A stretch of DNA of 64,000 nucleotides from Thermodesulfobacterium sp. TA1 (GTDB lineage: Bacteria > Desulfobacterota > Thermodesulfobacteria > Thermodesulfobacteriales > Thermodesulfobacteriaceae): the NCBI RefSeq assembly GCF_008630935.1, contig NZ_CP043908.1, positions 1,364,001 through 1,428,000 on the forward strand. Reading direction: 5' to 3'. Shown here piece after piece: positions 7,401 to 26,100 of this stretch. Below the pieces are notes generated by a model that saw only the letters and a program-made list of their open reading frames with translations, did no database searches and was not told where the DNA came from. The first letter of the stretch is position 1, and each line of letters starts with the position of its first letter. The position numbers were made by a program, and so were the translations under genes.

Positions 7401-7411
7401 GTTTATCCCTC

Positions 7412-7726: not shown

Positions 7727-7742
7727 GGTTATATCTTCTTTA

Positions 7743-9365: not shown

Positions 9366-9393
9366 ATTTTTAATTTTTTTAAATTTATTTAAT

Positions 9394-9681: not shown

Positions 9682-9701
9682 GTTTTAACCTCCTTCTAAA
9701 T

Positions 9702-9926
9702 TTAATTACATACTTCTTCCCATTCTACACATACTTTATACACACCACAGATTTTTTTACCAGGGAAAACAGGATCAGGCTGGCAAAATCTTCTTTCTTC
9801 CCATTTTTTACAAACCTTTTCGCAATTCTCATTGCTGGTGGTAGATTCTTTATTTTGAATATCTGTTGCCCAAAGGTTACTCATAAAAAAAACTAGGAAA
9901 CTAAGAACCAAAACTGTTTTTTTCAT
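9702..9926 (-). CDS. Cys-rich small secreted protein
   Basis: 74 aa. Signal peptide (KKTVLVLSFLVFFMSNLWA, cleaved near residue 20). The mature 54 residues hold six Cys with a repeated pattern: CEKVCKKWEERRFC then CGVYKVCVEWEEVC. The two C-x3/4-C-(K/V)-x-W-E-E blocks are an internal duplication. Six Cys in so small a protein suggests a disulfide-stapled periplasmic or extracellular peptide. No family recognised. A good ribosome site (GGAGGTAG) precedes the ATG. Confidence 0.65.
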   Translation of the reverse strand: MKKTVLVLSFLVFFMSNLWATDIQNKESTTSNENCEKVCKKWEERRFCQPDPVFPGKKICGVYKVCVEWEEVCN

Positions 9927-9967
9927 AGCCCTACCTCCAGATTATTTTTTAAAATCTTTCCCTGCTT

Positions 9968-10078
9968 ATTCTTAAGTTTCAGATTTCCTTACATTCCTTT
10001 TCAGCTCCCTTAGAAGTTTTTTGTCACTTCTCATACTTTGATCTTTATTAGTCTCTATATTAACATTATACCGAAAAT
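9968..10078 (-). pseudogene. Decayed partial copy of the 92-aa gene next door
   Basis: This stretch aligns with 10203-10315 inside the intact 92-aa gene (shared runs around ATTCTTAAGT, TTCCTTTTCAGCT and CACTTCTCATACTT) at an offset of about 235 bases. It has no start codon or intact frame. So a tandem duplication of the small secreted gene occurred and one copy decayed. The remaining bases 9927-9967 and 10079-10146 hold only the ribosome site of the 74-aa gene and nothing else that I recognise. Confidence 0.6.
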
Positions 10079-10146
10079 TTTTTTCATCTTCGACCTCCTA
10101 TCTAAAATTTAAAGTGCTTAAAATGAATGTTGGTATCATTCCTCAC

Positions 10147-10425
10147 TTATTTTCCTCTTCCATATTGTCCTTTTTTATCAATGTTCGGAACTGGATATTT
10201 TGGAGAATTCTTAAGTCTTGGGTTTTCCTTGCGTTCCTTTTCAGCTTCCCTAGCAGCTTTTAACCACTTCTCATACTTAGAACTTTTTTCTATCTCAGAG
10301 GGCTCATTAACCTCAAAATTTTTTGTAGATTTATTTACTTCATACATTGAATTGTCAGCTTTCCCTTTGAAAGTTGTAATGAATAATAAAAGAGTAAAAC
10401 TGAGTACTAATGTTAGTTTATTCAT
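10147..10425 (-). CDS. Small secreted charged protein
   Basis: 92 aa. Signal peptide of about 23 residues (KLTLVLSFTLLLFITTFKGKA). The mature part is highly charged and probably helical in the middle (KYEKWLKAAREAEKERKE), ending in a basic, Pro-rich tail (NSPKYPVPNIDKKGQYGRGK). No known family. It is first in the minus-strand secreted-protein cluster, behind a ribosome site (GCAGGAGG) in the duplicated promoter segment. A broken second copy lies just downstream. Confidence 0.6.
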   Translation of the reverse strand: MNKLTLVLSFTLLLFITTFKGKADNSMYEVNKSTKNFEVNEPSEIEKSSKYEKWLKAAREAEKERKENPRLKNSPKYPVPNIDKKGQYGRGK

Positions 10426-10433
10426 AAATTCAC

Positions 10434-10535
10434 CTCCTGCAATTTTTATGTTAAGGTTTGTTTAACACATTTTGTTTTGTATAATAAAACAAAAGCTTAT
10501 AAGTTAGAGAGGGACAGGGACTCCATTTTTGGTAG
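10434..10535 (-). repeat. Intergenic segment duplicated at 7412-7514, copy 2
   Basis: Second copy of the promoter/leader segment described at 7412-7514, here upstream of the 92-aa gene. Its outer third (GAGAGGGACAGGGACTCC) is also the first arm of the RNA hairpin predicted for the IS110 element, so the boundary between host promoter and insertion sequence lies inside or at the edge of this repeat. Confidence 0.65.
10469..10495. promoter_or_regulatory. 27-bp palindrome, second copy, possible operator
   Basis: Inverted repeat ATTTTGTTTT / AAAACAAAAG around a TATAAT-like 7-base centre, nine of ten pairs intact. On the minus strand the centre gives TATTAT, a plausible -10 for the secreted-protein cluster. 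Matches the site at 7445-7471. Confidence 0.5.
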
Positions 10536-10640
10536 GCCTTTGAGCCTCTTAAGGAGTATGTCCCTCTGTCCCTCAACACCCGATAAGTTGGTTGGGCTAC
10601 CAAAGCCCCAGCTACTCGGGAGGATGGTGTGAGGGACAAA
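10504..10640 (+). ncRNA. Candidate IS110 bridge (seek) RNA in the left end
   Basis: Immediately upstream of the transposase are two nested stem-loops. The first pairs GAGGGACAGGG/ACTCC (10507-10524) with GGAGT/CCCTCTGTCCCTC (10553-10574), enclosing an AGGC-GCCT hairpin. The second pairs CCCGA (10580-10584) with TCGGG, encloses GGGCT-ACCAA-AGCCC (10594-10609) and leaves unpaired strands TAAGTTGGTT and CAGCTAC on either side. Internal loops with two guide strands are the known layout of IS110 bridge RNAs. Fold done by eye. Confidence 0.55.
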
Positions 10641-10663
10641 AATCTTAAAAAGGAGGTAGCATC

Positions 10664-11863
10664 ATGACCCATTACATCGGTGTTGACATTTCTAAAGATA
10701 ACTTCCACTTCTGCATCCTTAACCATGAAGCTAAAACCCTCTCCTCCGGCAAACTCTCTATGTCTCTTCAAGGCTTCTCTGATTTCTTTAACCTTCTCAA
10801 AACCCTCTCTGACCCTATCGTTGTTATGGAATCCTCTGGTAGGTTCCACATCCCCCTTTACTGCTTCCTCGTTGAAAAAGATATCCAAACCTTCATCCTT
10901 AACCCTAAAATCGTCCACAGATTCTTTGAATTTATCTCCGCTAACAACCCCTCTAAATACGACACAAAAGATGCCAAAATCCTTGCACTCTTCGCTCTTA
11001 ATAACCCTGAATTCCTTAAATCCTATCCTGAAAACTCTGAACTCCGTAGTGCTTCTCGTCTTATCCAAAAACTTAAACATGAACTTGCTGAAGCTAAAAC
11101 TCAAATCAAATACGCCCTCACTGTTCTTTTCCCAGAAGCTGAAAAGCACTTTAATATTTACTCCCACTCCTTCCTTAACATACTCCTTAAATTCCCCTCT
11201 GCTAAAACCCTTAAAAAAGCTAAACCAAATGAAATTTCCGAAATTATTAAATCCTCTGTTCCTAAAGGTAAAACCCCTTCCTTTTCTCCCGATGAAGTCA
11301 TAAACCTTGCTAAAAACTCTATCGGGGTTGACAATCCTTATCTCTCTCAAACTCTTATCATCTACATCGAAAAACTCTTTTTCCTTGAGCCAAGAATAAA
11401 AAAGCTTGAAGAGATGCTTGTAGAGAAAATGGATGAAGACCAGCAAGAACAAATTAAGCTCATTTCCTCTATAAAAGGTATTTCCTCTAAACTTGCAAGT
11501 CTCTTTTTGGCTGAAATCAGAGACGTAAAAAGATTTTCTAATGCCAAAAAGCTCATAAAGTTTGCGGGCACAGACCCAGTAACAAAACAATCTGGTAAGT
11601 ATAAAGCTAAGATGAGCATATCTAAGCAAGGGTCGAGCTTTCTCAGAAATGTTCTTTTCCAGATGGCGGTAGGTGTAGTAAAATGGAATTTTTACTTCAG
11701 ATCCTATTTTATACGTAAGAAGAAAAACTTTGGCAGTTATAAGAAAGCTATGATAGCAGTTGTAAACAAACTTATAAGAGTTATCTATGCAATTTGTAGA
11801 AAAAAAACTTTCTTTAATCCTGCTTTTTCTAAGTTCCCTGTTCTGGAGGTCTCTCATGTTTAA
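10664..11863 (+). CDS. IS110-family transposase (DEDD recombinase)
   Basis: 399 aa, full length for the family. The N-terminal RuvC-like DEDD domain shows YIGVDIS (Asp8), VMESSGR, and KYDTKDAKILA. A coiled-coil linker covers about residues 145-260. The C-terminal Transposase_20 domain contains ISSIKGIS and the catalytic Ser region SISKQGSSFLRNVL. A strong ribosome site (AAGGAGGTAGC) precedes the ATG. The frame is intact, so the element may be active. Codon use is C-rich (many CTT/CTC/AAC) compared with the AT-rich genes around it, suggesting recent arrival. Long antisense and shifted frames here are shadows. Confidence 0.95.
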   Translation: MTHYIGVDISKDNFHFCILNHEAKTLSSGKLSMSLQGFSDFFNLLKTLSDPIVVMESSGRFHIPLYCFLVEKDIQTFILNPKIVHRFFEFISANNPSKYDTKDAKILALFALNNPEFLKSYPENSELRSASRLIQKLKHELAEAKTQIKYALTVLFPEAEKHFNIYSHSFLNILLKFPSAKTLKKAKPNEISEIIKSSVPKGKTPSFSPDEVINLAKNSIGVDNPYLSQTLIIYIEKLFFLEPRIKKLEEMLVEKMDEDQQEQIKLISSIKGISSKLASLFLAEIRDVKRFSNAKKLIKFAGTDPVTKQSGKYKAKMSISKQGSSFLRNVLFQMAVGVVKWNFYFRSYFIRKKKNFGSYKKAMIAVVNKLIRVIYAICRKKTFFNPAFSKFPVLEVSHV

Positions 11864-11994
11864 TTCCTATTTTCTGATAGTTGACTCCTTATTTAGTTGG
11901 CCTTTTTAATTTATCCAGCCTCTATGGGGGTCTGCATATAGCCTTATAACTCATTTTTTCATGTCCCCTCTCATATATCTGTGATTTGCTCACT

Positions 11995-13062
11995 TCAATT
12001 TCCCTCGCAGATTTTTTTGCATGCTTCAATAGAATCAAAAGGTACAACATGACCCCCACAGCCGCCATGAACAAATGTATGGCAGGTTTTGTCAAAATTA
12101 GAAAAATATGCTCCTTCAAACAGACCCTTACAAGTTCCTGGTAGAGGTGGTAAGTAACATCTCTTTTTAATATCAATCTTTTTTCCTTGAGTTCTTTGAA
12201 TAAAATCACTTAGAAATATAGCGGCACTTTTATGACCTTTAAAAGTGCAAGCATCAACATCTTCTTCATTTGGAATATTGCCTTTTTCTATGAGAATCTT
12301 TATAATGTTTACGTTTTCTATATCAGCCATACAGGTAAATTTTATAATATTTTTTTGTTTTAGATTGGCTCCTTTTTCTGCAAGAATATGAAAAATATCA
12401 TCATAGCCTTTTATTATAGCAATTTTAAGAGATTCGTCATTAAACTCAATTCCTTGTTTTAAAAGAAACAAAGAAACTTCTTTATGTTTTCTCCTGAGAA
12501 ATTCATTTAAAAAATTTGCTCCGACCGATTTCTTTATATCCCAGCCCTTTTTAAGGCAAACCTCAAAAATTTCTATGATTTTTTTATAGTCTCTTTCTCC
12601 GAAAGCAAGTCCATATAGCGGGATCTCTCCTCTGTTATCTTTCAAATTAAAATCAGCACCATTTTCTATAAGAAAAATAATAAAATCTTCATTCATAAAA
12701 TTGTAAGCAATAGCATCATGGAGAGGTGTTCTGCCATCTTTATCTTTGGCGTTAATATCAGCTCCTTTTGCCAAAAGAATTTTGACCATGTTAAGGTCTC
12801 CCTCTCGGGCTGCGTAATGAAGCAAAGTCTTACCATTGTCATCACGAACGTTTACATCCTTTTGATTAAGGATGTATTTTTTCATTAATTCAATATTGTC
12901 CGAGCCTTTCTTCATTTCTGATCCTTTGTCAACGAAATATCGTTGGAATATTTCATCATTAGATCGAGAATATGAGACAGATGGGAAAAGAAAGAAGTAT
13001 CCTGCAAAAAAAGCACAAATTATTGTGATTATCAATATTCTATGCTGACCCTTTTCCATCAT
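11995..13062 (-). CDS. Secreted ankyrin-repeat protein with C-terminal Kunitz (BPTI-type) domain
   Basis: 355 aa from the ATG at 13062 (GTG at 13074 and ATG at 13059 are alternatives; GGTGG and GGGAG precede them). A signal peptide or anchor spans about residues 6-30. Ankyrin repeats follow, clearest in KTLLHYAAREGDLNMVKILL and RTPLHDAIA, then degenerate repeats to about residue 285. The last about 54 residues are a Kunitz domain: six Cys with spacings 9-16-8-13-4, exactly those of bovine BPTI, plus TCKG (P1 Lys), the FVHGGCGG core and the final CKKIC. Kunitz domains inhibit serine proteases; Lys at P1 predicts a trypsin-like target. Stop-start overlap with the FecR fragment upstream. Confidence 0.85.
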   Translation of the reverse strand: MMEKGQHRILIITIICAFFAGYFFLFPSVSYSRSNDEIFQRYFVDKGSEMKKGSDNIELMKKYILNQKDVNVRDDNGKTLLHYAAREGDLNMVKILLAKGADINAKDKDGRTPLHDAIAYNFMNEDFIIFLIENGADFNLKDNRGEIPLYGLAFGERDYKKIIEIFEVCLKKGWDIKKSVGANFLNEFLRRKHKEVSLFLLKQGIEFNDESLKIAIIKGYDDIFHILAEKGANLKQKNIIKFTCMADIENVNIIKILIEKGNIPNEEDVDACTFKGHKSAAIFLSDFIQRTQGKKIDIKKRCYLPPLPGTCKGLFEGAYFSNFDKTCHTFVHGGCGGHVVPFDSIEACKKICEGN

Positions 13063-13373
13063 TTCTCCCACCACCTTTCAAGATTTTCTATTTTTCTTAT
13101 AGTTATAGTCTCACCTAAATTTATTATAGCTTCGTAGCCTTCTTGTATCAAATAGGATTTATTTTTAATATTATCGGTAAATTCAACTTCTCCTTCTATT
13201 ACCGAAATTTTTATAATGTGCCCATCTTCTCTTTCCACAACAAATTCAGTTCCTCTGGGTGTGGTAACAGCATCAGTAGGTACTTTACTACAATTCGGCC
13301 TCCCTACAGTAATCTTACATAATTCAATTCTAAGTTTTTTTATGGATTTTTGAATTCTTCTACTGCACCCCAT
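13059..13373 (-). pseudogene. FecR-domain protein, 5' end cut off by an IS3 remnant
   Basis: 104 codons are open. From about residue 33 the sequence is FecR-like: TPRGTEFVVEREDGHIIKIS, VIEGEVEF, then SYLIQEGYEAII. The N-terminus is missing, and the present first codons (MGCSRR) are read from the terminal repeat of the IS3-type fragment beginning at 13364. So an exported FecR-type protein was truncated by insertion. FecR domains bind or sense at the cell surface. The last codon overlaps the ankyrin-Kunitz start, so the two were one operon and the downstream gene may have lost its native promoter. Confidence 0.7.
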
Positions 13374-13530
13374 TTGTCAAGACATTTTTTATGCCTTAAA
13401 GTTTTAGAGGTCATGCTACCTTTCTTATCCTTTCCTCATATTTTGCTTCAAATTCTTCTGGGCTCATGTACCCAAGCTTAAAGTGCACATAGAGCTTGTT
13501 ATAGTCCTCTTGTATCCACCTGCTATAAAA
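13364..13530 (-). mobile_element. IS3-family remnant: right end and orfB C-terminus
   Basis: Terminal repeat TGCACCCCATTTGTCAAGAC starts at 13364. A frame read 13526 to 13411 gives WIQEDYNKLYVHFKLGYMSP then EEFEAKYEERIRKVA and stop, the characteristic C-terminus of IS3-family OrfB integrases (YN..R.H..LGY.SP pattern). The rest of the element is gone; 13531-13632 shows nothing recognisable. The same terminal repeat bounds the miniature elements at 17218 and 25259. Confidence 0.8.
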
Positions 13531-13632
13531 AATCCATACGATTAAGTATTTAAAAATTTTCATAATTACTTTTAATCTTTTTACTTATGTATACGATTCT
13601 TCTAATACGCTTTTGTTCTGTTTCTTTTAATG

Positions 13633-13929
13633 CTATTTTGATAGATTGTTATCAATCTTTGGCTTAGGGATTGGTATATATTGCACACCACCAGAGAGAT
13701 TGCTAGACCTTCCAGTATCAAACCCTTGACTTGCCTCTCTTCTTGCTCTCTCCCAAGAGCTATCAAGATCGTTATAATTTCCAGAAGATGTTGAATGTTG
13801 TTCTGCCCTCCAGCTGTCTCCTGAGGTTCCAGCGGCTTGGTCATAAGCAGAATCTCCACCATAAGCTATTCCCGATATAAACAAAACAAAAACCATACCA
13901 AACATGCCCTTCTTTAAGAATCTTTTCAT
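13633..13929 (-). CDS. Small secreted Ser/Gly-rich protein
   Basis: 98 aa. Signal peptide (LKKGMFGMVFVLFISGIAYG, cleaved near residue 24). The mature part is polar and low complexity: DQAAGTSGDSWRAEQHSTSS, then SSWERARREASQGFD and a short C-terminal IPIPKPKID tail. No family recognised; it looks intrinsically disordered. It follows the 1024-aa gene by 11 bases and has its own ribosome site (GGGGGGC region), so both should share one transcript. An alternative frame at 13602-13862 is a shadow. Confidence 0.6.
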   Translation of the reverse strand: MKRFLKKGMFGMVFVLFISGIAYGGDSAYDQAAGTSGDSWRAEQHSTSSGNYNDLDSSWERARREASQGFDTGRSSNLSGGVQYIPIPKPKIDNNLSK

Positions 13930-13940
13930 GATGCCCCCCT

Positions 13941-16900
13941 TTAAGATTTTTGATTAAGCTTTTGTAACTCCCCTTCTATCTCTTTTATACGTTTCATGCA
14001 TTTTTCTATGTACTGTTTTTGGGCGGATACAGCTTTATAGTAAAGATCTAAATTCTTTTCAAACTCCTTCATCTTTGTCCAGTGAGTAAAAACCACCTTT
14101 AAATCCAGCCCTGTATTAACAAAATGGGATAAAACCTTAGCTAAATCTTTGATCTTATCCTCTATACCAGGTATAGCATTAACAGCTTTTACTATCCCCT
14201 CTGCAAGGTCTTCAAAAGTATGATCTTCAACAGAAGCCCAATCAGCAAAATCTTTTGTAGCTAAAAGATCTTTAAATCTTTTAATCTCCTTCTCTCGTTT
14301 AGGAGATTTCTTAAAATGCTTTTCTAACCGCTTAAACAAATTGTCCTGTAACAGGTCTAACATGATCTCTTTAAACCTCTCTTCGCTTCTTAAGATAGCT
14401 TTTTCAGTCTCTTCTCTCCAGCTTTCAAACTCCTTAATATTTTCTAACATTCCCTTATTAAGTTTGTCTAAGTTGATTTTTGCCAAGTAAAGTTTATGTT
14501 TAAGGTCAGCCAGTTCTTCTCCAAGCTTTGTTTCGTCAGGCAAGAGTTTTTCTTCTTTTAGTTTCTCGGCACGTTTTTCTACCTCCTCAGGTTTATCCTC
14601 TAAAGTAGAAGTTTGAGGTTTTCTTTTAAAGACTGTGGGGTCTATTACTAATGGACGATCAGGTTTTAGTTCCACTATTTTTTGTCCTACTGTTTGATAA
14701 TCTAAAGGATTTTGTCGGTAATGATTTAATAAATCGTTAAGTTTTTGTAAAGAAGTCTTTATCTTAGCCTCTTCTTCCTTGGCTTTAGCTAAAATTTGAT
14801 TATACTTTTCTGGTTCAGTATGTTTAAAACTCTCAGCTGAGCTAATCTCCTTTTTTAACCGTGCATATTCATCTAAGTTAGCTGCTACCACCTCTAATAG
14901 CTTTTTATTAAAAACTCCTTGAGACCCTACAGGTAGACTGTTTAGTTGTGGATTCACATATAAAGGCACCTTTACACCTAAAGATGAAAGGTCGATTCGT
15001 CCTATCATGGCTTGTGCGCTTTTTTCGGCAAGGTCTCTGGCTGATTCAAGGTCTCCTGCAAGGGCTGAAGCCACTGCTTTTTCTGCCAAAACTGAACTTG
15101 CTGCCAGCTGATGAATGGCATCCTTAGTTTCTATATAATTTCCCTTTATCCACGCATTAGTTGTGTCTCGATAATCAACCCCTCCACCATGATTTTCGAC
15201 AAAGAAAGAAAAACTGTCGGTTTCTTTTGAATAACAAAAGGTAGCAACTGTAGTCCCGGTTACTCCAACCAATTCTTCTAAATCAACTCTTTGGTAAGAG
15301 GGAAGAGTTACTTTTAAATTATTGGATTTTAGCCATCTGGCTAAGGCTAAGACCTTTTGGATTTCTCTCATGGTATGTAATGAAGGGAAAATCTGAGAAA
15401 ACTCTTCATATCTACTGGTTAACATCTCTGCATATTCCTTTAAAATTTCGACATACCAAGAGGGCATATCTGAACTTAAAGGCTCACTACCTATTCTTAC
15501 CTCTGACCTTGCAAAGTAAACAGCGGATTTATCAGGACTGATTTTTAATTCTACCTTTCTAGGAAAAATCCAATGACGATCAAGTCCATTTTTAATCTTT
15601 TGAAACTCCTTACCCTTACCTTTTTCATTAACCTTTTGAGTAAGGTAGACAACAAAGGGATAAAAATCTTTAAGGGATGCTGTTTCAAGATTTAAAGTGG
15701 TTACATACTTAAGCGTATAATCTGCATAAAAAAAGGCTTTAGCTATATAAGTATCTGAGGATAGATTAAAATACGTTGGTTTCACTTCGATAGAAGGAAT
15801 TTTAAACCTTTTTTTTATAAAGGAATCGCTTAAAACAAGGTTATAGAAGACGGTCTTCATCATCCATTCTCTTTGGATTTCTTCAAATTTTTGGTTGGCA
15901 AACTCGCTTAATTCTTGGTCACAATTTCCTCTTAGAGGAGCCCTTTTAATAGCTGCTTCTATTACCTCTTCTTTTACCCCCATACCTCTAAGCAAATTTT
16001 TATAAAGTAAAAACAATAAATTACGAGAAGCCTCCCAGTTGTCTATTTTTCCGGAATTAAAGTCACTTCTTATCCTTTCAAACTCATCAATAAGACCCAG
16101 CGTCTCATAAATCTCTCTAAACCAATGTCCTGCGTTTTCCATACCATAAACTTCAGAAAACTTTTGAAATCCCCAAAATTGAACCATAGCTTTTCCATAT
16201 TTTCCCTCAAGCCCTAAAGCCATAAAAATTTTATAAAAAAGCTCCTGTAAATGTAGATACTGCTCAAGTTGTTCTCTATTGTTGAACTTCCATTTTTTAG
16301 ATTTTGGCTCCCAATTAAGATAAGCCTCAAATTCTTCGGGGGTAATCGAAAATACTTTTAGCCTTGCTAAAAGTATTTGTTTTTCTGGTAAAGGTGGAGA
16401 AGAATACAAAATTTCTTTCAATATACCTGATAACCAATTAGCTCCATAATTTAGGTCTCGACCTACCCTATCCATTTCTTGATCAAAGATAGATTTGATT
16501 TCTTCTAATGCCCTGTATGTATTTTTAGTTGGGTCTAAAGAAAAAGATGGATAAGGATACCTAAGAGCCTCGTCCAAAACTTGAACGTAGGGGAGAGGTC
16601 CTGTTTTGTATTTTGGGTCGTAATGTCCTACCAAAGTAATCTCTCCTGTGTTTTTATCGATAAAAATCCCGTCTAAGACATTGATCGCAGAAGTTTTAGC
16701 TAAAAGACTGTTTTTATCAAGAAGGTCTCCCTTTTTATTTGCTTTATCTATCAATCTTTCTCTTGAAGAACCTTTAAAGGCTATTTTTGACCTATCTTGA
16801 AACGATTGAATCGTAACACCCAAGGCAGGTTTTTCCTTGGATATGTTTACAGAAAGAGATAAAATTTTGCCCTCCTTAACCACCTCCTGAGAATACGCAT

Positions 16901-17015
16901 AAACAACCAGACTTAATGCTAAAACAAAAGCTAAAACAATGTTCCTAATAGTTGAAATAGTTGATATAAATGATGAAATCTTGAAATAAAAGTCAAATTT
17001 CAAAAATCCTATCAC
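13941..17015 (-). CDS. Large (1024-aa) secreted protein of unknown function, coiled-coil C-terminus
   Basis: GTG start at 17015. Residues 1-46 are identical to those of the Spy-like protein at 25107 and contain the signal peptide (RNIVLAFVLALSLVVYAYSQ). The mature N-terminal part contains SAINVLDGIFIDKNTGEITL then GHYDPKYKTGPLPYVQVLDE and continues to about residue 650 as a mixed helical/beta region with few Cys. Residues about 700-1024 are rich in Lys and Glu with long heptad-like stretches (LKHKLYLAKINLDKLNKG, YIEKCMKRIKEIEGELQKL), probably coiled coil. I cannot place it in a known family. Periplasmic or surface location is likely; the neighbouring autotransporter shares its promoter cassette. 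Confidence 0.75.
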   Translation of the reverse strand: MIGFLKFDFYFKISSFISTISTIRNIVLAFVLALSLVVYAYSQEVVKEGKILSLSVNISKEKPALGVTIQSFQDRSKIAFKGSSRERLIDKANKKGDLLDKNSLLAKTSAINVLDGIFIDKNTGEITLVGHYDPKYKTGPLPYVQVLDEALRYPYPSFSLDPTKNTYRALEEIKSIFDQEMDRVGRDLNYGANWLSGILKEILYSSPPLPEKQILLARLKVFSITPEEFEAYLNWEPKSKKWKFNNREQLEQYLHLQELFYKIFMALGLEGKYGKAMVQFWGFQKFSEVYGMENAGHWFREIYETLGLIDEFERIRSDFNSGKIDNWEASRNLLFLLYKNLLRGMGVKEEVIEAAIKRAPLRGNCDQELSEFANQKFEEIQREWMMKTVFYNLVLSDSFIKKRFKIPSIEVKPTYFNLSSDTYIAKAFFYADYTLKYVTTLNLETASLKDFYPFVVYLTQKVNEKGKGKEFQKIKNGLDRHWIFPRKVELKISPDKSAVYFARSEVRIGSEPLSSDMPSWYVEILKEYAEMLTSRYEEFSQIFPSLHTMREIQKVLALARWLKSNNLKVTLPSYQRVDLEELVGVTGTTVATFCYSKETDSFSFFVENHGGGVDYRDTTNAWIKGNYIETKDAIHQLAASSVLAEKAVASALAGDLESARDLAEKSAQAMIGRIDLSSLGVKVPLYVNPQLNSLPVGSQGVFNKKLLEVVAANLDEYARLKKEISSAESFKHTEPEKYNQILAKAKEEEAKIKTSLQKLNDLLNHYRQNPLDYQTVGQKIVELKPDRPLVIDPTVFKRKPQTSTLEDKPEEVEKRAEKLKEEKLLPDETKLGEELADLKHKLYLAKINLDKLNKGMLENIKEFESWREETEKAILRSEERFKEIMLDLLQDNLFKRLEKHFKKSPKREKEIKRFKDLLATKDFADWASVEDHTFEDLAEGIVKAVNAIPGIEDKIKDLAKVLSHFVNTGLDLKVVFTHWTKMKEFEKNLDLYYKAVSAQKQYIEKCMKRIKEIEGELQKLNQKS

Positions 17016-17038
17016 TTTATAACCAATCCTAATTCTAT

Positions 17039-17106
17039 ATAATTAAAAGTATAATATAATTAAAAGTATAATATAATTAAAAGTATAATATAATTAAAAG
17101 TATAAT
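17039..17106. repeat. Four tandem 17-bp units overlapping the -10 region
   Basis: Unit ATAATTAAAAGTATAAT at 17039-17055, 17056-17072, 17073-17089 and 17090-17106. The paralogous cassette has only one unit (25131-25147). On the minus strand each unit carries ATTATACTTTTAATTAT and adds to the 5' leader; the unit nearest the -35 supplies part of the -10 region. Pattern typical of slipped-strand expansion. Confidence 0.9.
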
Positions 17107-17132
17107 ATACTTAACTCTTAGAATTTTGTCAA
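17104..17132 (-). promoter_or_regulatory. Promoter of the 1024-aa secreted protein
   Basis: TTGACA (plus-strand TGTCAA at 17127-17132), a 17-base spacer and TATATT (17104-17109). Transcription would start about 85 bases before the GTG start and pass through the 17-bp tandem units. Same -35, spacer and -10 as the copy at 25145-25173. Confidence 0.7.
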
Positions 17133-17217
17133 CCAAAATTTTAAGCTTTTTTTGGGAAATTAAAGAAATTATATGATATTATATTTAATTTTTCTTTATT
17201 TTTTTTAATTTTCCTAT

Positions 17218-17402
17218 TGCATCCCATTTGTTAAGACATTTTTTTATGCCCTAAAGTTGTTGAGATAAAGACTATTGCTAATTTCTCTCTGCCGTCCATT
17301 TCCTCTGTTTCATCTCACACCTCCTGTCTTAATATTTTATCCCTGCCTAACAAGAGAGTTTAACCTCTACAACTTTGGTGTGTCCAGTCCCTATGGGGTT
17401 CA
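17218..17402 (-). mobile_element. IS3-derived miniature element (MITE-like), copy 1
   Basis: 185 bases bounded by imperfect inverted repeats: TGCATCCCATTTGTTAAGAC at 17218 and, on the minus strand from 17402, TGAACCCCATAGGGACTGG. Inside, on the minus strand, is a ribosome site and the first codons of an IS3 orfA (MKQRKWTAE, from the ATG at 17313) that run at once into a stop and then the opposite end. So it is an internally deleted IS3 element. Identical copy at 25259-25443; a related terminal repeat with an orfB tail is at 13364. Confidence 0.7.
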
Positions 17403-17456
17403 GTATAAGGTTATTCAACAGCTTCATAAGCTCTCTGTAGTTACTATTTTGAAATA

Positions 17457-17912: not shown

Positions 17913-20900
17913 CTACCAATTATATCTTAGCATCATTGACCCAGAGTAGCCCGTGTAATCTCCATTAAAGTCTCCTCTTCCGGAAATCTCAAGACCGAGG
18001 TTCTTCTGAAGCCTAAATTCTCCTCCAAGCTGGACAATAAAAGTCGTTCTATTTATCTCCCTTGATAATTTCCATCTTGTTGGGTCACTTCTCATATAGT
18101 TAACCGCACTTATATCATTTTTCCCAAATGCCTGTTCCAATCTTCCATAAGCATAAAGTTTAACTGGCATTGCACCTGCCTTTGCTTCGGAAGCAAGCAT
18201 AACCCCTATCACTCCTTTCCACATATGTTTGCTATCAGGATCATAATATCTATCCCAACTTGTTACCCTGTTCCCAGCACTGTCATAAACCTTTGTCCAA
18301 AAACTTTCGGGATTGTAGTAAGTATATCTTATTCCTATCTCAGGAATTACATTTAATTTCCCTCTATAAACTTTCCCAAGAAGTATTTCCCCATGGACAC
18401 CTTTCATGGTATAACTTGCCTTCTCTTTAAGCTCCAAATTTAGTCCTGTACGTCCATTATAGTCATTTGAACTACTAAATCCATACATGTTATATCTTAA
18501 ATAGGAATCTTTCATCATTATCCACATACCTGTAATACCAAGTGAAAAGATGTCAGAGTCACCATCTTTTGCTGATCTTCTACTATAGTCATATTCAGCT
18601 CTCAAATAATTGGCATAGATACCTAAAGAAAAGTTCTTTGTAAGAAAACCTCCTAATCCGATGTTAAATCCATAAGTATTGGTATCAAAACCAAGGTCAT
18701 CGGCAGAAACATGAGTATAAAGAGGTTTAAACCACATGCCACCACGATATTCAACTCCACCAAGACTATATCCAGCTCCAACATCACTTATGCCAGCAGA
18801 CGCAAGCATCACTGGCTGATAACCTTTCACAAGAATAAAAGGCGAAGTAATAGGCAGAGAAGTAAAGATACTATCTACCATAATTGAATTAACTATAACT
18901 CCACCTATCATACTGTTAACTGATCCTAATGCTTCTTCTGGTTTGTTCAAAGCTAAATATTTAAAAATAATCTGTGCATCTTTATCAGTTATATTTGGGT
19001 CATACCATGCTACATCAATAAGTGGATTTGTATAGCCTTTCTCTAACTCGCCCCAATTACCATTTACTGTCCCATTACTTTCTATTAAATTATAAGGAGT
19101 GCCTACAACTATGTATTGAGCACTATTATTCCAAAGTCTTACAACTAAGGTTGCATTATTAAGACCAAGTGATGAACCACTTTCAACGTAAATGGGAGCT
19201 GTATTAGGTCCAGTACCAGGCGCTCCAAAAGTGATGGCAAACTTGTCTTTAAGAGTTACATTAGAGCCAGAATCTACATAAAGGGTGCGAAGCTTTTTCC
19301 CAGAAAGAGCATCTCCCCAAACAACTATTTCACCAGGGTTTGAAAGTTCAACTGTTGAATTAATAATATAAATTCCAGCTACCTTATCTACATTTCCACT
19401 TGCAGAAACTGTAATGGTTCCATTGTTTATAAGAGTTATCTCTGAATCTTTTAAATAGATTCCAAAGCTGTTTACTGTCCCACTTGAAGAGCTAGCAGAT
19501 ATATCAATGATCCCCTTATTAAGGATTGTTGAACCAGTCTGTGCTTTCTCAATATATAATCCTGTTGCCTTTGCTGACTGCTCTCCTATAGTTGAAACTT
19601 TAATCGTTCCACTACTTTCATTTAAAAGATCTTCTGTAAGAACCACTGCGTATACACCAGTTGCCTCTGTGTCCTTACCAGTTGCTATCACCTTAATGGT
19701 GCCATTATTGGTAAAGTTATTTATGGTATCTTCGTCAACATATAATCCATAAGCTTTTGCAGTCCCATTTGTCGCTGTGGCTCTCACATCTATTGTCCCT
19801 TCATTCGTAAAATTTCCCATATCATATGCATACACTCCATACACAGTTGCATTCCCACCTGTTGCAGTTGCATTTACGATTATTGATCCATTACTAGTAA
19901 ATTTGCCTATATAACCTGCATACACTCCATATGCATATGCAGTATATTCTGAATTCGCACTTCCTGTAATTGACCCGCTATTTGTTAAATTTCCTATACT
20001 TCCTGCATACACTCCATATGTTCTTACTAAACTTGTCCCACTAGCACTTCCTGTAATTGACCCGCTATTTGTTAAATTTACAATACTTCCTGTATACACT
20101 CCATATGCATCTGCATTTGTCCCATTCGCACTCCCTGTAATTGACCCGCTATTTGTTAAATCCCCTATGTTATCTGCAACCACTCCATACGCCTCTGCAT
20201 AATCTGTCCCATTCGCACTCCCTATAATTGACCCGCTATTTGTTAAATCCCCTATGCTTCCTGTATCCACTCCAGCTGCCTCTGTAGTTCCATTTGTTGA
20301 AATTGCACTCACAGTTATTAATCCAGTATTAGTGAAATTGCCTATATCCTCTGTTGTAGATACTCCAAACGCTGTTACCTCATCTACTCCCTTCGCTGTT
20401 ACTATTATGCTCCCTTCGTTTGTAAAATTGCCTATCTGACCTACATAACCTTCCTCACCACCTGCCATAACACCTATTACATTCGCACTCCCTCCATTAT
20501 TCTCCCCATAAACCTCAATCTTCCCACCTTCTAAATTCCTAAACTCTCCTATCGTCCCATTAAATACTGCTACCCCTACTGCATTAAGCTCCCCTCCATC
20601 TGCATATCCACTTACCGTTAAATTCCCATCGTTAATGAATATACCTATTTCCCCAGATTCCCCACCTTCTATTTCTTCCGGTAATCCTGCCATTACCCCT
20701 ACTACTGCTGACCATTCCCCACCAGTTGAATTGGTAAATACTGATATGTTTCCAGTATTATTGAAATATCCTATATCCTCTGACTTAACCCCTACTGCTG
20801 TCGCATTAATCGATTCTATAGATACCAATATATTCCCAGTGTTCGTAAAATTACCTACACTCTCTATCTCAACCCCTACAGGTATGTTATTATCCGCATA

Positions 20901-23900
20901 GTTTACATAGCCACCAGTTCCATTTACGTTTATATTTCCACTATTAACAAAATTAGTTGCATTTAAAGCATAAACTCCAGCAAGCATAAGTTGCCCTGAA
21001 GAATCAGTCACATTACCAAAAACATCTATACGACCTTCGTTTATAAGGTTAGTAACATTACCAACAACTACCCCACCTGCTAATACTTCTGTGCCATTTG
21101 CTAAAACTTGAATGGTACCATTATTTGTTAAATTCCCTATGCTTCCTGCATACACTCCATATGCACTTGCATTATCTGTCCCACTCGCACTTACTGTAAT
21201 TGACCCGCTATTTGTTAAATCTACTATGTTATCTGCATCCACTCCATATGCCCTTGCATAAGATCCCCCACTCGCACTTACTGTAATTGACCCGCTATTT
21301 GTTAAATCTACTATGTTATCTGCAACCACTCCATATGCACTTGCATTATCTGTCCCACTCGCACTTACTGTAATTGACCCGCTATTTGTTAAATCTACTA
21401 TGTTATCTGCATCCACTCCATATGCCCTTGCATAAGATCCCCCACTCGCACTTACTGTAATTGACCCGCTATTTGTTAAATCCCCTATGCTTCCTGTATC
21501 CACTCCAGCTGCCTCTGTAGTTCCATTTGTTGAAATTGCACTCACAGTTATTAATCCAGTATTAGTGAAATTGCCTATATCCTCTGTTGTAGATACTCCA
21601 AACGCTGTTACCTCATCTACTCCCTTCGCTGTTACTATTATGCTCCCTTCGTTTGTAAAATTGCCTATCTGACCTATATAATCTTCCTCACCACCTGCCA
21701 TAACACCTATTACATTCGCACTCCCTCCATTATTCTCCCCATAAACCTCAATCTTCCCACCTTCTAAATTCCTAAACTCTCCTATCGTCCCATTAAATAC
21801 TGCTACCCCTACTGCATTAAGCTCCCCTCCATCTGCATATCCACTTACCGTTAAATTCCCATCGTTAATGAATATACCTATTTCCCCAGATTCCCCACCT
21901 TCTATTTCTTCCGGTAATCCTGCCATTACCCCTACTACTGCTGACCATTCCCCACCAGTTGAATTGGTAAATACTGATATGTTTCCAGTATTATTGAAAT
22001 ATCCTATATCCTCTGACTTAACCCCTACTGCTGTCGCATTAATCGATTCTATAGATACCAATATATTCCCAGTGTTCGTAAAATTACCTACACTCTCTAT
22101 CTCAACCCCTACAGGTATGTTATTATCCGCATAGTTTACATAGCCACCAGTTCCATTTACGTTTATATTTCCACTATTAACAAAATTAGTTGCATTTAAA
22201 GCATAAACTCCAGCAAGCATAAGTTGCCCTGAAGAATCAGTCACATTACCAAAAACATCTATACGACCTTCGTTTATAAGGTTAGTAACATTACCAACAA
22301 CTACCCCACCTGCTAATACTTCTGTGCCATTTGCTAAAACTTGAATGGTACCATTATTTGTTAAATTCCCTATGCTTCCTGCATACACTCCATATGCACT
22401 TGCATTATCTGTCCCACTCGCACTTACTGTAATTGACCCGCTATTTGTTAAATCTACTATGTTATCTGCATCCACTCCATATGCCCTTGCATAAGATCCC
22501 CCACTCGCACTTACTGTAATTGACCCGCTATTTGTTAAATCTACTATGTTATCTGCAACCACTCCATATGCACTTGCATTATCTGTCCCACTCGCACTTA
22601 CTGTAATTGACCCGCTATTTGTTAAATCTACTATGTTATCTGCATCCACTCCATATGCCCTTGCATAAGATCCCCCACTCGCACTTACTGTAATTGACCC
22701 GCTATTTGTTAAATCTACTATGTTATCTGCATCCACTCCATATGCCCTTGCATAAGATCCCCCACTCGCACTTACTGTAATTGACCCGCTATTTGTTAAA
22801 TCCCCTATGCTTCCTGTATCCACTCCAGCTGCCTCTGTAGTTCCATTTGTTGAAATTGCACTCACAGTTATTAATCCAGTATTAGTGAAATTGCCTATAT
22901 CCTCTGTTGTAGATACTCCAAACGCTGTTACCTCATCTACTCCCTTCGCTGTTACTATTATGCTCCCTTCGTTTGTAAAATTGCCTATCTGACCTATATA
23001 ATCTTCCTCACCACCTGCCATAACACCTATTACATTCGCACTCCCTCCATTATTCTCCCCATAAACCTCAATCTTCCCACCTTCTAAATTCCTAAACTCT
23101 CCTATCGTCCCATTAAATACTGCTACCCCTACTGCATTAAGCTCCCCTCCATCTGCATATCCACTTACCGTTAAATTCCCATCGTTAATGAATATACCTA
23201 TTTCCCCAGATTCCCCACCTTCTATTTCTTCCGGTAATCCTGCCATTACCCCTACTACTGCTGACCATTCCCCACCAGTTGAATTGGTAAATACTGATAT
23301 GTTTCCAGTATTATTGAAATATCCTATATCCTCTGACTTAACCCCTACTGCTGTCGCATTAATCGATTCTATAGATACCAATATATTCCCAGTGTTCGTA
23401 AAATTACCTACACTCTCTATCTCAACCCCTACAGGTATGTTATTATCCGCATAGTTTACATAGCCACCAGTTCCATTTACGTTTATATTTCCACTATTAA
23501 CAAAATTAGTTGCATTTAAAGCATAAACTCCAGCAAGCATAAGTTGCCCTGAAGAATCAGTCACATTACCAAAAACATCTATACGACCTTCGTTTATAAG
23601 GTTAGTAACATTACCAACAACTACCCCACCTGCTAATACTTCTGTGCCATTTGCTAAAACTTGAATGGTACCATTATTTGTTAAATTCCCTATGCTTCCT
23701 GCATACACTCCATATGCACTTGCATTATCTGTCCCACTCGCACTTACTGTAATTGACCCGCTATTTGTTAAATCTACTATGTTATCTGCATCCACTCCAT
23801 ATGCCCTTGCATAAGATCCCCCACTCGCACTTACTGTAATTGACCCGCTATTTGTTAAATCTACTATGTTATCTGCAACCACTCCATATGCACTTGCATT

Positions 23901-24629
23901 ATCTGTCCCACTCGCACTTACTGTAATTGACCCGCTATTTGTTAAATCTACTATGTTATCTGCATCCACTCCATATGCCCTTGCATAAGATCCCCCACTC
24001 GCACTTACTGTAATTGACCCGCTATTTGTTAAATCTACTATGTTATCTGCATCCACTCCATATGCCCTTGCATAAGATCCCCCACTCGCACTTACTGTAA
24101 TTGACCCGCTATTTGTTAAATCCCCTATGCTTCCTGTATCCACTCCAGCTGCATATACATAAGATCCCCCAACCCCACCTGCTAATACTTGAATGGTACC
24201 ATTCTCAGTTATAGTTAAATTACCAATCGGCCTTACCTGAGATCCTTCTTCAATAGCACCATTTGCAAAAATACCTATGGTTTTATTACCTGCAGTTGAG
24301 TTTGTCTGTGTAACTTCAAGCGTTGCATTAATGGTTAAATCAGAAAATATATTACTTGTATCATTATCTACAAATATCCCAAAAGTATTAGCCCCTGTGT
24401 TATTGATTATGTTAAGATCCTCCTCCAACGTATAGGAACTATTTGACCCATTCAAATAAACTCCTATCTCCTGCCCAACTGTCATAGAACCACTCGCTCC
24501 TAAAATCAAAACAATAAACAACCCCAATACCAACCAATCTAAATACCACTTAAACCTCTTATCACACACCTCCTTCCCCCCTACTCTTTGTCCAAAATTT
24601 TCTTTCCTATTCTTATTCTCTTTGTCCAT
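17913..24629 (-). CDS. Giant repeat-built autotransporter (type Va) adhesin-like protein
   Basis: 2238 aa from the ATG at 24629 (AGGAGG 7 bases upstream; a GTG directly before is less likely). An extended signal peptide covers about residues 1-54 (WLVLGLFIVLILGASGS). The passenger, to about residue 1950, is beta-helix-like with hundreds of short NLTNSGSITVSASG-type strands. The last about 270 residues form the outer-membrane beta-barrel, starting GGMWFKPLYTHVSADDLGFD and ending MMLRYNW with an aromatic last residue. The passenger contains three near-identical 411-440-residue blocks, each with four or five 29-residue units. The barrel exports the passenger to the surface; adhesion or autoaggregation is the usual role, inferred here. 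Two bases downstream of the Spy-like gene: same operon. Confidence 0.93.
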   Translation of the reverse strand: MDKENKNRKENFGQRVGGKEVCDKRFKWYLDWLVLGLFIVLILGASGSMTVGQEIGVYLNGSNSSYTLEEDLNIINNTGANTFGIFVDNDTSNIFSDLTINATLEVTQTNSTAGNKTIGIFANGAIEEGSQVRPIGNLTITENGTIQVLAGGVGGSYVYAAGVDTGSIGDLTNSGSITVSASGGSYARAYGVDADNIVDLTNSGSITVSASGGSYARAYGVDADNIVDLTNSGSITVSASGTDNASAYGVVADNIVDLTNSGSITVSASGGSYARAYGVDADNIVDLTNSGSITVSASGTDNASAYGVYAGSIGNLTNNGTIQVLANGTEVLAGGVVVGNVTNLINEGRIDVFGNVTDSSGQLMLAGVYALNATNFVNSGNINVNGTGGYVNYADNNIPVGVEIESVGNFTNTGNILVSIESINATAVGVKSEDIGYFNNTGNISVFTNSTGGEWSAVVGVMAGLPEEIEGGESGEIGIFINDGNLTVSGYADGGELNAVGVAVFNGTIGEFRNLEGGKIEVYGENNGGSANVIGVMAGGEEDYIGQIGNFTNEGSIIVTAKGVDEVTAFGVSTTEDIGNFTNTGLITVSAISTNGTTEAAGVDTGSIGDLTNSGSITVSASGGSYARAYGVDADNIVDLTNSGSITVSASGGSYARAYGVDADNIVDLTNSGSITVSASGTDNASAYGVVADNIVDLTNSGSITVSASGGSYARAYGVDADNIVDLTNSGSITVSASGTDNASAYGVYAGSIGNLTNNGTIQVLANGTEVLAGGVVVGNVTNLINEGRIDVFGNVTDSSGQLMLAGVYALNATNFVNSGNINVNGTGGYVNYADNNIPVGVEIESVGNFTNTGNILVSIESINATAVGVKSEDIGYFNNTGNISVFTNSTGGEWSAVVGVMAGLPEEIEGGESGEIGIFINDGNLTVSGYADGGELNAVGVAVFNGTIGEFRNLEGGKIEVYGENNGGSANVIGVMAGGEEDYIGQIGNFTNEGSIIVTAKGVDEVTAFGVSTTEDIGNFTNTGLITVSAISTNGTTEAAGVDTGSIGDLTNSGSITVSASGGSYARAYGVDADNIVDLTNSGSITVSASGTDNASAYGVVADNIVDLTNSGSITVSASGGSYARAYGVDADNIVDLTNSGSITVSASGTDNASAYGVYAGSIGNLTNNGTIQVLANGTEVLAGGVVVGNVTNLINEGRIDVFGNVTDSSGQLMLAGVYALNATNFVNSGNINVNGTGGYVNYADNNIPVGVEIESVGNFTNTGNILVSIESINATAVGVKSEDIGYFNNTGNISVFTNSTGGEWSAVVGVMAGLPEEIEGGESGEIGIFINDGNLTVSGYADGGELNAVGVAVFNGTIGEFRNLEGGKIEVYGENNGGSANVIGVMAGGEEGYVGQIGNFTNEGSIIVTAKGVDEVTAFGVSTTEDIGNFTNTGLITVSAISTNGTTEAAGVDTGSIGDLTNSGSIIGSANGTDYAEAYGVVADNIGDLTNSGSITGSANGTNADAYGVYTGSIVNLTNSGSITGSASGTSLVRTYGVYAGSIGNLTNSGSITGSANSEYTAYAYGVYAGYIGKFTSNGSIIVNATATGGNATVYGVYAYDMGNFTNEGTIDVRATATNGTAKAYGLYVDEDTINNFTNNGTIKVIATGKDTEATGVYAVVLTEDLLNESSGTIKVSTIGEQSAKATGLYIEKAQTGSTILNKGIIDISASSSSGTVNSFGIYLKDSEITLINNGTITVSASGNVDKVAGIYIINSTVELSNPGEIVVWGDALSGKKLRTLYVDSGSNVTLKDKFAITFGAPGTGPNTAPIYVESGSSLGLNNATLVVRLWNNSAQYIVVGTPYNLIESNGTVNGNWGELEKGYTNPLIDVAWYDPNITDKDAQIIFKYLALNKPEEALGSVNSMIGGVIVNSIMVDSIFTSLPITSPFILVKGYQPVMLASAGISDVGAGYSLGGVEYRGGMWFKPLYTHVSADDLGFDTNTYGFNIGLGGFLTKNFSLGIYANYLRAEYDYSRRSAKDGDSDIFSLGITGMWIMMKDSYLRYNMYGFSSSNDYNGRTGLNLELKEKASYTMKGVHGEILLGKVYRGKLNVIPEIGIRYTYYNPESFWTKVYDSAGNRVTSWDRYYDPDSKHMWKGVIGVMLASEAKAGAMPVKLYAYGRLEQAFGKNDISAVNYMRSDPTRWKLSREINRTTFIVQLGGEFRLQKNLGLEISGRGDFNGDYTGYSGSMMLRYNW
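20248..24120 (-). repeat. Three tandem ~1.3-kb blocks with nested 87-bp units inside the autotransporter gene
   Basis: Block borders (TCCCCTATGCTTCCTGTATC) recur at 20248, 21481, 22801 and 24121. Blocks are therefore 1233, 1320 and 1320 bases; the 87-base difference is exactly one 29-codon unit. Each block starts (in coding direction) with five, five or four 29-residue units alternating GGSYARAYGVDADNIVDLTN and GTDNASAYGV versions, followed by about 295 residues of non-tandem strands. Blocks 1 and 2 look nearly identical at the DNA level; block 3 has a few changes (for example EGYVGQIG for EDYIGQIG). A diverged fourth start follows. Confidence 0.95.
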
Positions 24630-24633
24630 CACT

Positions 24634-25107
24634 TTACCTCCTTCCTATTCTAATCTCCCTCCACTTCTTCCTCTGCTCCTCGTTTAACACCCCGTCTATC
24701 TTCTTCCCTGTCTCAAGCTCCTCTGCTATCAGCTCCCCACGAAGACAATGTATCTCCTTGACAAGCTTCTTTATTTCTTTGATGTCCCAATCACTGTTTA
24801 ACATCTCCTTAAACCTTGCCTCCTTCTCCCTAATCTTGCTTGACAACTCTTGCTCCTTTTTAAAAAATCCCTGCAAATACTTCTCTATCTCCTTAACCTG
24901 CTTCTCATTAAGCTTAAGCTCCTCCTTAAAATCAAGAATAGTCTTTCTTGCTTGAGGAACACCTCCCTTAACCACCTCCTGAGAATACGCATAAACAACC
25001 AGACTTAATGCTAAAACAAAAGCTAAAACAATGTTCCTAATAGTTGAAATAGTTGATATAAATGATGAAATCTTGAAATAAAAGTCAAATTTCAAAAATC
25101 CTATCAC
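24634..25107 (-). CDS. Spy/CpxP-like periplasmic protein (LTXXQ-type)
   Basis: 157 aa, GTG start. The first 46 residues are the same signal-peptide cassette as the 1024-aa protein. The mature part is all-helical with LKLNEKQVKEIEKYLQGFF near its start and VLNEEQRKKWREI near its end, the two LTxxQ-type motifs of the Spy/CpxP/heavy-metal-resistance family. Such proteins are periplasmic chaperones or stress sensors. Standing directly before a giant autotransporter, it may protect the unfolded passenger in the periplasm; that role is an inference. Confidence 0.8.
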   Translation of the reverse strand: MIGFLKFDFYFKISSFISTISTIRNIVLAFVLALSLVVYAYSQEVVKGGVPQARKTILDFKEELKLNEKQVKEIEKYLQGFFKKEQELSSKIREKEARFKEMLNSDWDIKEIKKLVKEIHCLRGELIAEELETGKKIDGVLNEEQRKKWREIRIGRR

Positions 25108-25144
25108 TTTATAACCAATCCTAATTCTATATAATTAAAAGTAT

Positions 25145-25173
25145 AATATAATTAACTCTTAGAATTTTGTCAA
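25145..25173 (-). promoter_or_regulatory. Promoter of the Spy-like/autotransporter operon
   Basis: TTGACA (plus-strand TGTCAA at 25168-25173), 17-base spacer, TATATT (25145-25150). One 17-bp unit (25131-25147) overlaps the -10, compared with four in the sister cassette. Confidence 0.7.
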
Positions 25174-25258
25174 CCAAAATTTTAAGCTTTTTTTGGGAAA
25201 TTAAAGAAATTATATGATATTATATTTAATTTTTCTTTATTTTTTTTAATTTTCCTAT

Positions 25259-25443
25259 TGCATCCCATTTGTTAAGACATTTTTTTATACCCTAAAGTTG
25301 TTGAGATAAAGACTATTGCTAATTTCTCTCTGCCGTCCATTTCCTCTGTTTCATCTCACACCTCCTGTCTTAATATTTTATCCCTGCCTAACAAGAGAGT
25401 TTAACCTCTACAACTTTGGTGTGTCCAGTCCCTATGGGGTTCA
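25259..25443 (-). mobile_element. IS3-derived miniature element, copy 2
   Basis: Same 185-base element as at 17218-17402, with the same inverted ends (TGCATCCC... and, on the minus strand, TGAACCCC...). It was carried along in the cassette duplication rather than inserted twice, since the flanks match too. Confidence 0.7.
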
Positions 25444-25495
25444 GTATAAGGTTATTCAACAGCTTCATAAGCTCTCTGTAGTTACTATTTTGAAA

Positions 25496-26100
25496 GGTGA
25501 TTCCTCATTTTATTCCACCTAAACATAAATACACCATTTCATCTAAGTTATCTCTACTATTATACCTGAATTCAAGTTCTTTCAAGTAATACACAAAATT
25601 CTCCCTGCTTACTCCATGAAACTTAAGAAGTCTCTCTTTGGCATAACTCCAAAATCCTTCTATCCCATTTATATATACCTTCCCATTTGCAGACCTTATA
25701 CTCTTGTCTACTCTCTCGTGTCTAAAACCATACATCACAAGTCCGTCATAGCTCCTAAATTTGTCTGTGTAAATTAAACTCCCCCTCTTTACCTTCTTTA
25801 TCGTCTCCTTTAACAGAGCCTCACAAGATACATCCTTAACTACTTCTACTTTTACTTTTCCTTGCCTTTCAAGAATTCCAAATACTGGTATCTTACCTTC
25901 TGCTCCCATCCCTCTCTTCTTCCCTCCAAATTTTGTTTCCACAAAAGGGACAACAAGTAAAGGTTTTAAGCACACCTTTAGCTCTTAAGAATTCTTCTGC
26001 CTTTTCTTCAGAGGATGCTATTTCTACGAGCTCTGCTAAGTTCATAGTTCCCACCTCCCGAATAAATTATAACAGAGGTGGAATATTTTGAGCAATCACC
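25496..26100 (-). mobile_element. IS1595-family (ISXO2-like) element, internally deleted
   Basis: Inverted ends: GGTGATTCCTCATTTTATTC at 25496 and, on the minus strand from 26100, GGTGATTGCTCAAAATATTC, both followed by CACCT. Between them is a shortened transposase gene. About 605 bases in all, against roughly 1 kb for intact relatives. No flanking target duplication is visible. Confidence 0.85.
25505..26045 (-). pseudogene. IS1595-family transposase, deleted and frameshifted
   Basis: The N-terminus is read from an ATG at 26045: MNLAELVEIASSEEKAEEFL, then RAKGVLKTFTCCPFCG, the zinc-ribbon start of ISXO2-type transposases. The frame then shifts near 25960 and resumes at VETKFGGKKRGMGAEGKIPV, the first DDE block, and continues to the C-terminus (YTDKFRSYDGL, VYINGIEGFWSYAKERL, NSRD). 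About 100 residues between the zinc ribbon and the DDE block are missing. Not functional. Confidence 0.8.

What the first reader, a model, noticed from the sequence alone, without database searches (positions are those of the whole stretch)
20248..24120. Nested repeats of two sizes in a giant autotransporter
Seen: three head-to-tail blocks of 1320, 1320 and 1233 bp that differ in length by one 87-bp unit; each block contains 4-5 copies of the 87-bp unit. Blocks 1 and 2 appear nearly identical. This suggests recent unequal recombination or gene conversion and a protein whose surface length can change in both 29- and about 440-residue steps.
Basis: seen in the sequence. Interest (0 to 1): 0.75.

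Follow-up and report, generated by a model that had tools for sequence, protein, structure and literature searches.

The report
Stretchable rod-like surface protein gene
A heat-loving sulfate-reducing bacterium carries a gene for a long, rod-shaped surface protein built from short repeats nested inside large, almost identical repeats, so recombination could plausibly lengthen or shorten the rod in small or large steps; the gene travels with a small chaperone-like partner gene.

Summary
The 2,239-codon ORF 17913..24632(-) holds blocks of 1320, 1320 and 1233 bp. Blocks 1 and 2 are identical, inside a 1,479-bp exact repeat. Block 3 equals block 2 minus one 87-bp unit plus two substitutions. Copies of each unit type are byte-identical. 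The protein is a classical autotransporter: PF03797 barrel, and a passenger block predicted as a beta-solenoid (pLDDT 95.6). Genus: Thermodesulfobacterium. Relatives' genes carry their own exact in-frame duplications of other lengths (93, 369, 264, 540, 741 bp), so multi-scale duplication recurs in this clade. Length change within a species is inferred, not shown: one genome per species, no reads. Beyond the finding, a small LTXXQ (Spy/CpxP-type) gene sits 1-4 bp upstream, precedes all four family autotransporters whose upstream side is visible, and is present in the same 5 of 30 family genomes as the autotransporter. The cassette is an insertion that near relatives lack. Nested or variable repeats in autotransporters have precedents (BigE, ShdA, Periscope Proteins); the LTXXQ pairing was not found in the papers searched. 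Verdict: real, a variant of a known kind, moderate interest.

The parts
17913..24632 (-). autotransporter ORF, 2239 codons (GTG 24632; ATG 24629 also possible)
   Evidence: open frame, translation
22833..24152 (-). block 1, 1320 bp (440 codons)
   Evidence: identical to block 2
21513..22832 (-). block 2, 1320 bp
   Evidence: identical to block 1; exact repeat 1479 bp at offset 1320
20280..21512 (-). block 3, 1233 bp (411 codons)
   Evidence: block 2 minus one 87-bp U1 unit, plus 2 substitutions at 20449 and 20444
23688..24122 (-). 87-bp array 1: U1 U1 U2 U1 U3
   Evidence: unit typing by exact DNA; TRF 87-bp arrays
22368..22802 (-). 87-bp array 2: U1 U1 U2 U1 U3
21135..21482 (-). 87-bp array 3: U1 U2 U1 U3
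22818..23702 (-). 295-residue segment between arrays 1 and 2 (further solenoid coils)
21498..22382 (-). 295-residue segment between arrays 2 and 3, identical to the first
20265..21149 (-). third 295-residue segment (2 residues differ)
19905..20249 (-). diverged repeat units U5-U8 after block 3
   Evidence: 11-38 differences per 87 bp from U1-U3
17982..18737 (-). PF03797 autotransporter beta-domain
   Evidence: E 5.4e-24; genome position; Foldseek
24634..25107 (-). LTXXQ (Spy/CpxP-type) small exported protein, 157 aa, ends 1-4 bp before the autotransporter start
   Evidence: PF07813 E 7.7e-5, just under the cut-off; over cut-off with its frame neighbours in the genome search
24962..25495 (-). 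upstream region and signal-peptide codons of the LTXXQ gene, duplicated at 16871-17454
   Evidence: 99.5% identical pieces
16871..17454 (-). second copy of that region, fused to the 1024-aa ORF
13941..17015 (-). 1024-aa exported protein; relatives' version has its own signal peptide and PDZ-like start, lost here
25505..25984 (-). IS1595/ISXO2-like transposase remnant
   Evidence: PF12762 E 3.5e-26

Best explanation
A classical (type Va) autotransporter of a Thermodesulfobacterium species. The N-terminal signal takes it to the periplasm, the C-terminal barrel inserts in the outer membrane, and the passenger folds outside as one continuous beta-solenoid rod, most likely a surface adhesin or spacer for attachment or biofilm life. 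Its membrane-distal two thirds were lengthened at two nested scales: 29-residue rungs (87 bp) amplified first, then an array plus a 295-residue run of other rungs was duplicated as a unit to give three blocks; one extra U1 arose and was copied with the newest block. Homologous recombination between these long identical in-frame repeats can add or remove 29 or about 411-440 residues without breaking the frame, because whole rungs are exchanged. The adjoining LTXXQ protein probably acts as a dedicated periplasmic holdase for the unfolded passenger. Shown: repeats, frame, barrel, predicted solenoid, linkage. Inferred: adhesion, actual length switching, chaperone role.
For: Exact nested repeats and unit order; all offsets multiples of 3, far beyond the shuffle control. 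PF03797 and barrel fold (model pLDDT 69). Passenger block AF2 pLDDT 95.6, all-beta, aligned to HMW1, EtpA and Fap2 beta-helices at Z 18-21. Independent exact in-frame duplications in T. geofontis (93 and 369 bp; 264 bp in its second gene) and near-exact ones in G002 (540 and 741 bp). The 295-aa segment is also present in T. geofontis in three diverged, partly incomplete copies. In drafts G002, G003 and G019 the genes lie at contig edges, as repeats would cause. LTXXQ adjacent in four visible cases and co-occurring in 5 of 5 genomes.
Against: No second isolate or reads, so no length variation seen. No adhesive domain or ligand identified; no Pfam or NCBIfam family over cut-off in the passenger. 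Foldseek alone gave no significant match for the passenger (best E 0.39). G187, a more distant relative, has no exact repeats of 30 bp or more, so repetition is not required for the family. LTXXQ function rests on family membership only.
Confidence: 0.62

Rival explanations
1. The repeats are a passive by-product: slippage and conversion homogenise solenoid coils in any such gene, and the length has no regulatory meaning.
For: Beta-solenoids tolerate coil gain and loss (general knowledge); the 295-aa segment seems to be duplicated by lineage (T. geofontis copies A and B 64% alike, own copies 99-100%); no adhesion data.
Against: Recent exact duplications in four genes of three species suggest at least tolerance of frequent change; a selective role is untested.
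Confidence: 0.3
2. Old blocks kept identical by gene conversion, rather than a recent duplication.
For: Block 3 shares everything but two substitutions and one unit with blocks 1-2; conversion would also give identity; the related gene in T. geofontis has several old copies of the segment.
Against: T. geofontis copies are not homogenised (37-64% alike), and exact identity of blocks 1 and 2 including the extra U1 is most simply one recent duplication.
Confidence: 0.25
3. Assembly artefact: the identical block was inserted by mis-assembly.
For: Blocks 1 and 2 are byte-identical over 1,479 bp; reads are not available here.
Against: Closed single-contig genome; block 3 is distinguishable by an 87-bp difference and two substitutions; short-read assembly would normally collapse, not expand, such a repeat; relatives also carry exact repeats.
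Confidence: 0.07

Closest known systems
Classical autotransporters, type Va (PF03797; EstA, EspP, NalP, Hbp)
   Same: C-terminal beta-domain, signal-like N terminus, long beta-helical passenger; already reported for Thermodesulfobacteria as a phylum (PMC4793230)
   Different: no annotated passenger domain; passenger dominated by nested near-identical repeats; LTXXQ gene next to it
BigE, a very large autotransporter (PMC3419190)
   Same: a ~309-residue passenger segment repeated 8 times plus 8 repeats of 69 residues
   Different: as described there the two repeat kinds are distinct regions; here the short units are nested inside each long block, at DNA identity 99.8-100%
Periscope Proteins, and ShdA with 4-6 PATR repeats (PMC8201768, PMC9704523)
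   Same: highly identical tandem repeats in a rod-like surface protein, proposed recombination-driven length change
   Different: repeats are rungs of one solenoid, not separate folded domains; strain-to-strain variation not tested
Fap2 of Fusobacterium nucleatum (PDB 9qe7)
   Same: autotransporter adhesin with long beta-helix; aligned over 392 residues at 21% identity, Z 18.4
   Different: host-cell adhesin of a mesophile; no block repeat comparison made
Spy/CpxP (LTXXQ) periplasmic chaperone family
   Same: PF07813 match, small exported protein with a TILDFKxELxLxExQ motif
   Different: encoded directly before an autotransporter; no such pairing found in the papers searched

Membership tests
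Classical autotransporter (type Va) | C-terminal PF03797 beta-domain | tested here: met
   E 5.4e-24, 85.8 bits against cut-off 26
Classical autotransporter (type Va) | autotransporter barrel fold with passenger on the same chain | tested here: met
   barrel model (mean pLDDT 69) best matches EstA, AaaA, EspP, NalP, E 2e-11 to 6e-13; same ORF; the number of strands was not counted
Classical autotransporter (type Va) | N-terminal Sec signal peptide | tested here: inconclusive
   hydrophobic stretch YLDWLVLGLFIVLILGASGS read by eye; no predictor available
Classical autotransporter (type Va) | passenger exposed on the cell surface | not testable with these tools
   needs protease shaving or microscopy
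Periscope Proteins | long, highly identical tandem repeats in a surface protein | tested here: met
   surface location inferred from the barrel
Periscope Proteins | repeats are individually folding domains (PMC9704523) | tested here: not met
   29-residue units are rungs of a continuous predicted beta-solenoid
Periscope Proteins | repeat number varies between strains | not tested
   one genome per species held; relatives carry different duplications
LTXXQ / Spy family (24634..25107) | PF07813 at or over the gathering score | tested here: met
   own protein 23.8 bits alone (cut-off 24.3), 24.4 with frame neighbours; orthologues 26.9 and 32.1 bits
LTXXQ / Spy family (24634..25107) | periplasmic chaperone activity | not testable with these tools
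   needs an aggregation assay

The most novel reading that the evidence does not exclude
A mobile two-gene module: a recombination-extendable beta-solenoid autotransporter with its own dedicated Spy-family periplasmic chaperone, which keeps a passenger of near-identical, misfolding-prone repeats export-competent at high temperature; the same chaperone branch also serves other giant repetitive secreted proteins (two LTXXQ genes directly after a giant repeat protein in G223, of another family in the phylum).
Probability: 0.35. Interest if true: 0.65.

Novelty: new variant of a known kind. Interest (0 to 1): 0.45.

Why it matters
It offers a natural, non-pathogenic example of how a secreted beta-solenoid grows at two scales by recombination, in a deep-branching thermophile. 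It raises a testable question: do autotransporters with near-identical repeats need a dedicated chaperone? Large multidomain proteins are thought to avoid adjacent identical domains because they misfold (PMC8201768). The co-occurrence of LTXXQ and autotransporter genes in the family makes a specific, knock-out-testable prediction.

Tried and rejected
The window's own species was not identified. N-X-S/T sequons are enriched in the passenger (85 against 38 +/- 5 in shuffles), but the FTN/LTN turn motif of each rung probably explains it; not pursued as glycosylation. HMMER hits SwrA, HflC, Sat3 in the passenger are weak, below cut-off and dismissed. Foldseek alone gave no significant fold for the passenger. 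G365, G058 and G285 are weak or unlike barrel matches and were not used. The chance figure for LTXXQ/autotransporter coincidence (7e-6) ignores shared ancestry and is not a proper test.

Full report
Observation. The ORF at 17913..24632 on the minus strand (2,239 codons) contains the reported structure. A shift analysis gives an exact repeat of 1,479 bp at offset 1320, and exact stretches of 1,033 and 219 bp at offset 1233. Splitting the protein at AAGVDTGSIGDL gives blocks of 440, 440 and 411 codons; blocks 1 and 2 are identical as DNA. Removing one 87-bp unit from block 2 leaves only two differences from block 3, 20449 (D to G) and 20444 (I to V). Typed by exact sequence, the arrays read U1U1U2U1U3, U1U1U2U1U3, U1U2U1U3, followed after block 3 by diverged units U5-U8. 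Codon shuffles never gave an exact repeat over 20 bp, and every exact repeat of 30 bp or more has an offset divisible by three. The genome is one contig of 1,829,881 bp.

Order of events (inference). The simplest history is: amplification of 29-residue rungs; duplication of an array with its 295-residue neighbour segment; gain of one U1 in one block; then a recent duplication of that 1320-bp block. A 32-bp, 88% identical match joins the N-terminal flank to the start of each 295-residue segment (IGNLT..NGTIQVLA in the protein) and may mark the original junction. Gene conversion is an alternative for the identity.

What the protein is. The C-terminal part matches PF03797 at E 5.4e-24; the model of this end (mean pLDDT 69) is closest to the EstA, AaaA, EspP and NalP translocators. 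One block plus flanks, modelled with own and related passengers, gives a confident all-beta model (pLDDT 95.6, pTM 0.93). Foldseek alone found nothing significant, but the second aligner placed it on HMW1 and EtpA (Z 21.3 and 20.6) and on the Fap2 autotransporter adhesin (392 residues, Z 18.4, 21% identity). In the arrays the strand pattern repeats every 29 residues, so an 87-bp step should add one repeat of a continuous rod (inference).

Relatives. G010 has the length of T. geofontis OPF15 and carries two such genes, of 2,285 and 1,216 codons. The barrel search over 30 family genomes found 4 carriers; G002 is a fifth, with the N-terminal part of such a protein cut by a contig end. T. geofontis has three diverged or partial copies of the 295-residue segment. 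Recent exact or near-exact duplications of other sizes occur in both T. geofontis genes and in G002, but not in the distant G187. In drafts G002, G003 and G019 the autotransporter lies at contig edges, as expected if repeats break assembly.

LTXXQ partner. The 157-aa gene at 24634..25107 ends 1-4 bp before the autotransporter start and is a weak PF07813 member. Its orthologue directly precedes both T. geofontis genes and the G002 gene. In G019 it lies 35 bp from a contig end with its downstream side off the contig, and in G003 it is itself cut by a contig end. In the family, LTXXQ and autotransporter are found in the same five genomes; neither was found in the other 25, some of which are incomplete drafts. 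In G223, from another family of the phylum, two LTXXQ genes directly follow a giant repetitive protein that ends without this barrel. Chaperone function is inferred from the family (Spy, CpxP; general knowledge). Paper searches for LTXXQ or Spy with autotransporters gave nothing relevant; the library lacks most subscription papers. The distant autotransporter of G187 has no such gene beside it, so the pairing is a trait of this family, not of autotransporters at large.

Locus history. In G009, G012 and G021 the 1024-aa gene's homologue follows rpsO directly, with its own signal peptide and a PDZ-like N terminus (PDZ by eye). Here about 9 kb with the LTXXQ-autotransporter pair lies between. The 1024-aa gene has lost its native start and instead bears a near-identical copy of the LTXXQ gene's upstream region and signal peptide (16871-17454 against 24962-25495). 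The barrel differs from T. geofontis at 24.5% of fourfold sites (25 of 102), while rpoB and rpoC differ at 50-53%. This, with the patchy distribution, points to horizontal transfer of the cassette. The N-terminal part and LTXXQ are more diverged (44-47% of few sites), so exchange may be mosaic.

Known precedents. Type Va autotransporters were already reported in Thermodesulfobacteria (PMC4793230). BigE combines long and short passenger repeats (PMC3419190). ShdA varies by 4-6 beta-helical repeats and the Periscope class defines recombination-driven length change (PMC8201768, PMC9704523). The repeat finding is therefore a variant of a known kind. It fails the Periscope criterion of individually folding repeat domains but may work like one.

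Limits. No reads, no second isolate, no species name for the window's genome, no functional data. Length switching, adhesion and chaperone action are predictions.

Noticed in passing
17037-17114 and 25129-25145: A 17-bp unit TATACTTTTAATTATAT occurs 4.6 times in tandem upstream of the 1024-aa gene but once in the otherwise near-identical region upstream of the LTXXQ-autotransporter pair; exact copies occur nowhere else in the genome. Possible promoter-spacing variation.
   Followed up: partly
13941-17015 against L049, L050, L051: The 1024-aa exported protein has lost the PDZ-like start of its homologues and bears a copy of the neighbouring operon's promoter and signal peptide: a promoter and signal-peptide capture.
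   Followed up: partly
16871-17454 and 24962-25495: Direct repeats (same orientation) of about 550 bp flank the autotransporter gene and most of the LTXXQ gene; recombination between them would delete both.
   Followed up: no
11995-13074: Predicted protein with ankyrin repeats and a C-terminal Kunitz/BPTI domain (E 3.4e-10), unusual in a bacterium, inside a ~7-kb stretch (6658-13956) absent from relatives.
   Followed up: no
10664-11863: IS110-family transposase on the plus strand overlapping a 468-aa minus-strand ORF, in the same inserted stretch.
   Followed up: no
L073:11452-15371: Two LTXXQ genes directly after a giant, tandemly repetitive secreted-type protein in a distant relative (G223), independent support for an LTXXQ link to giant repeat proteins.
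   Followed up: partly
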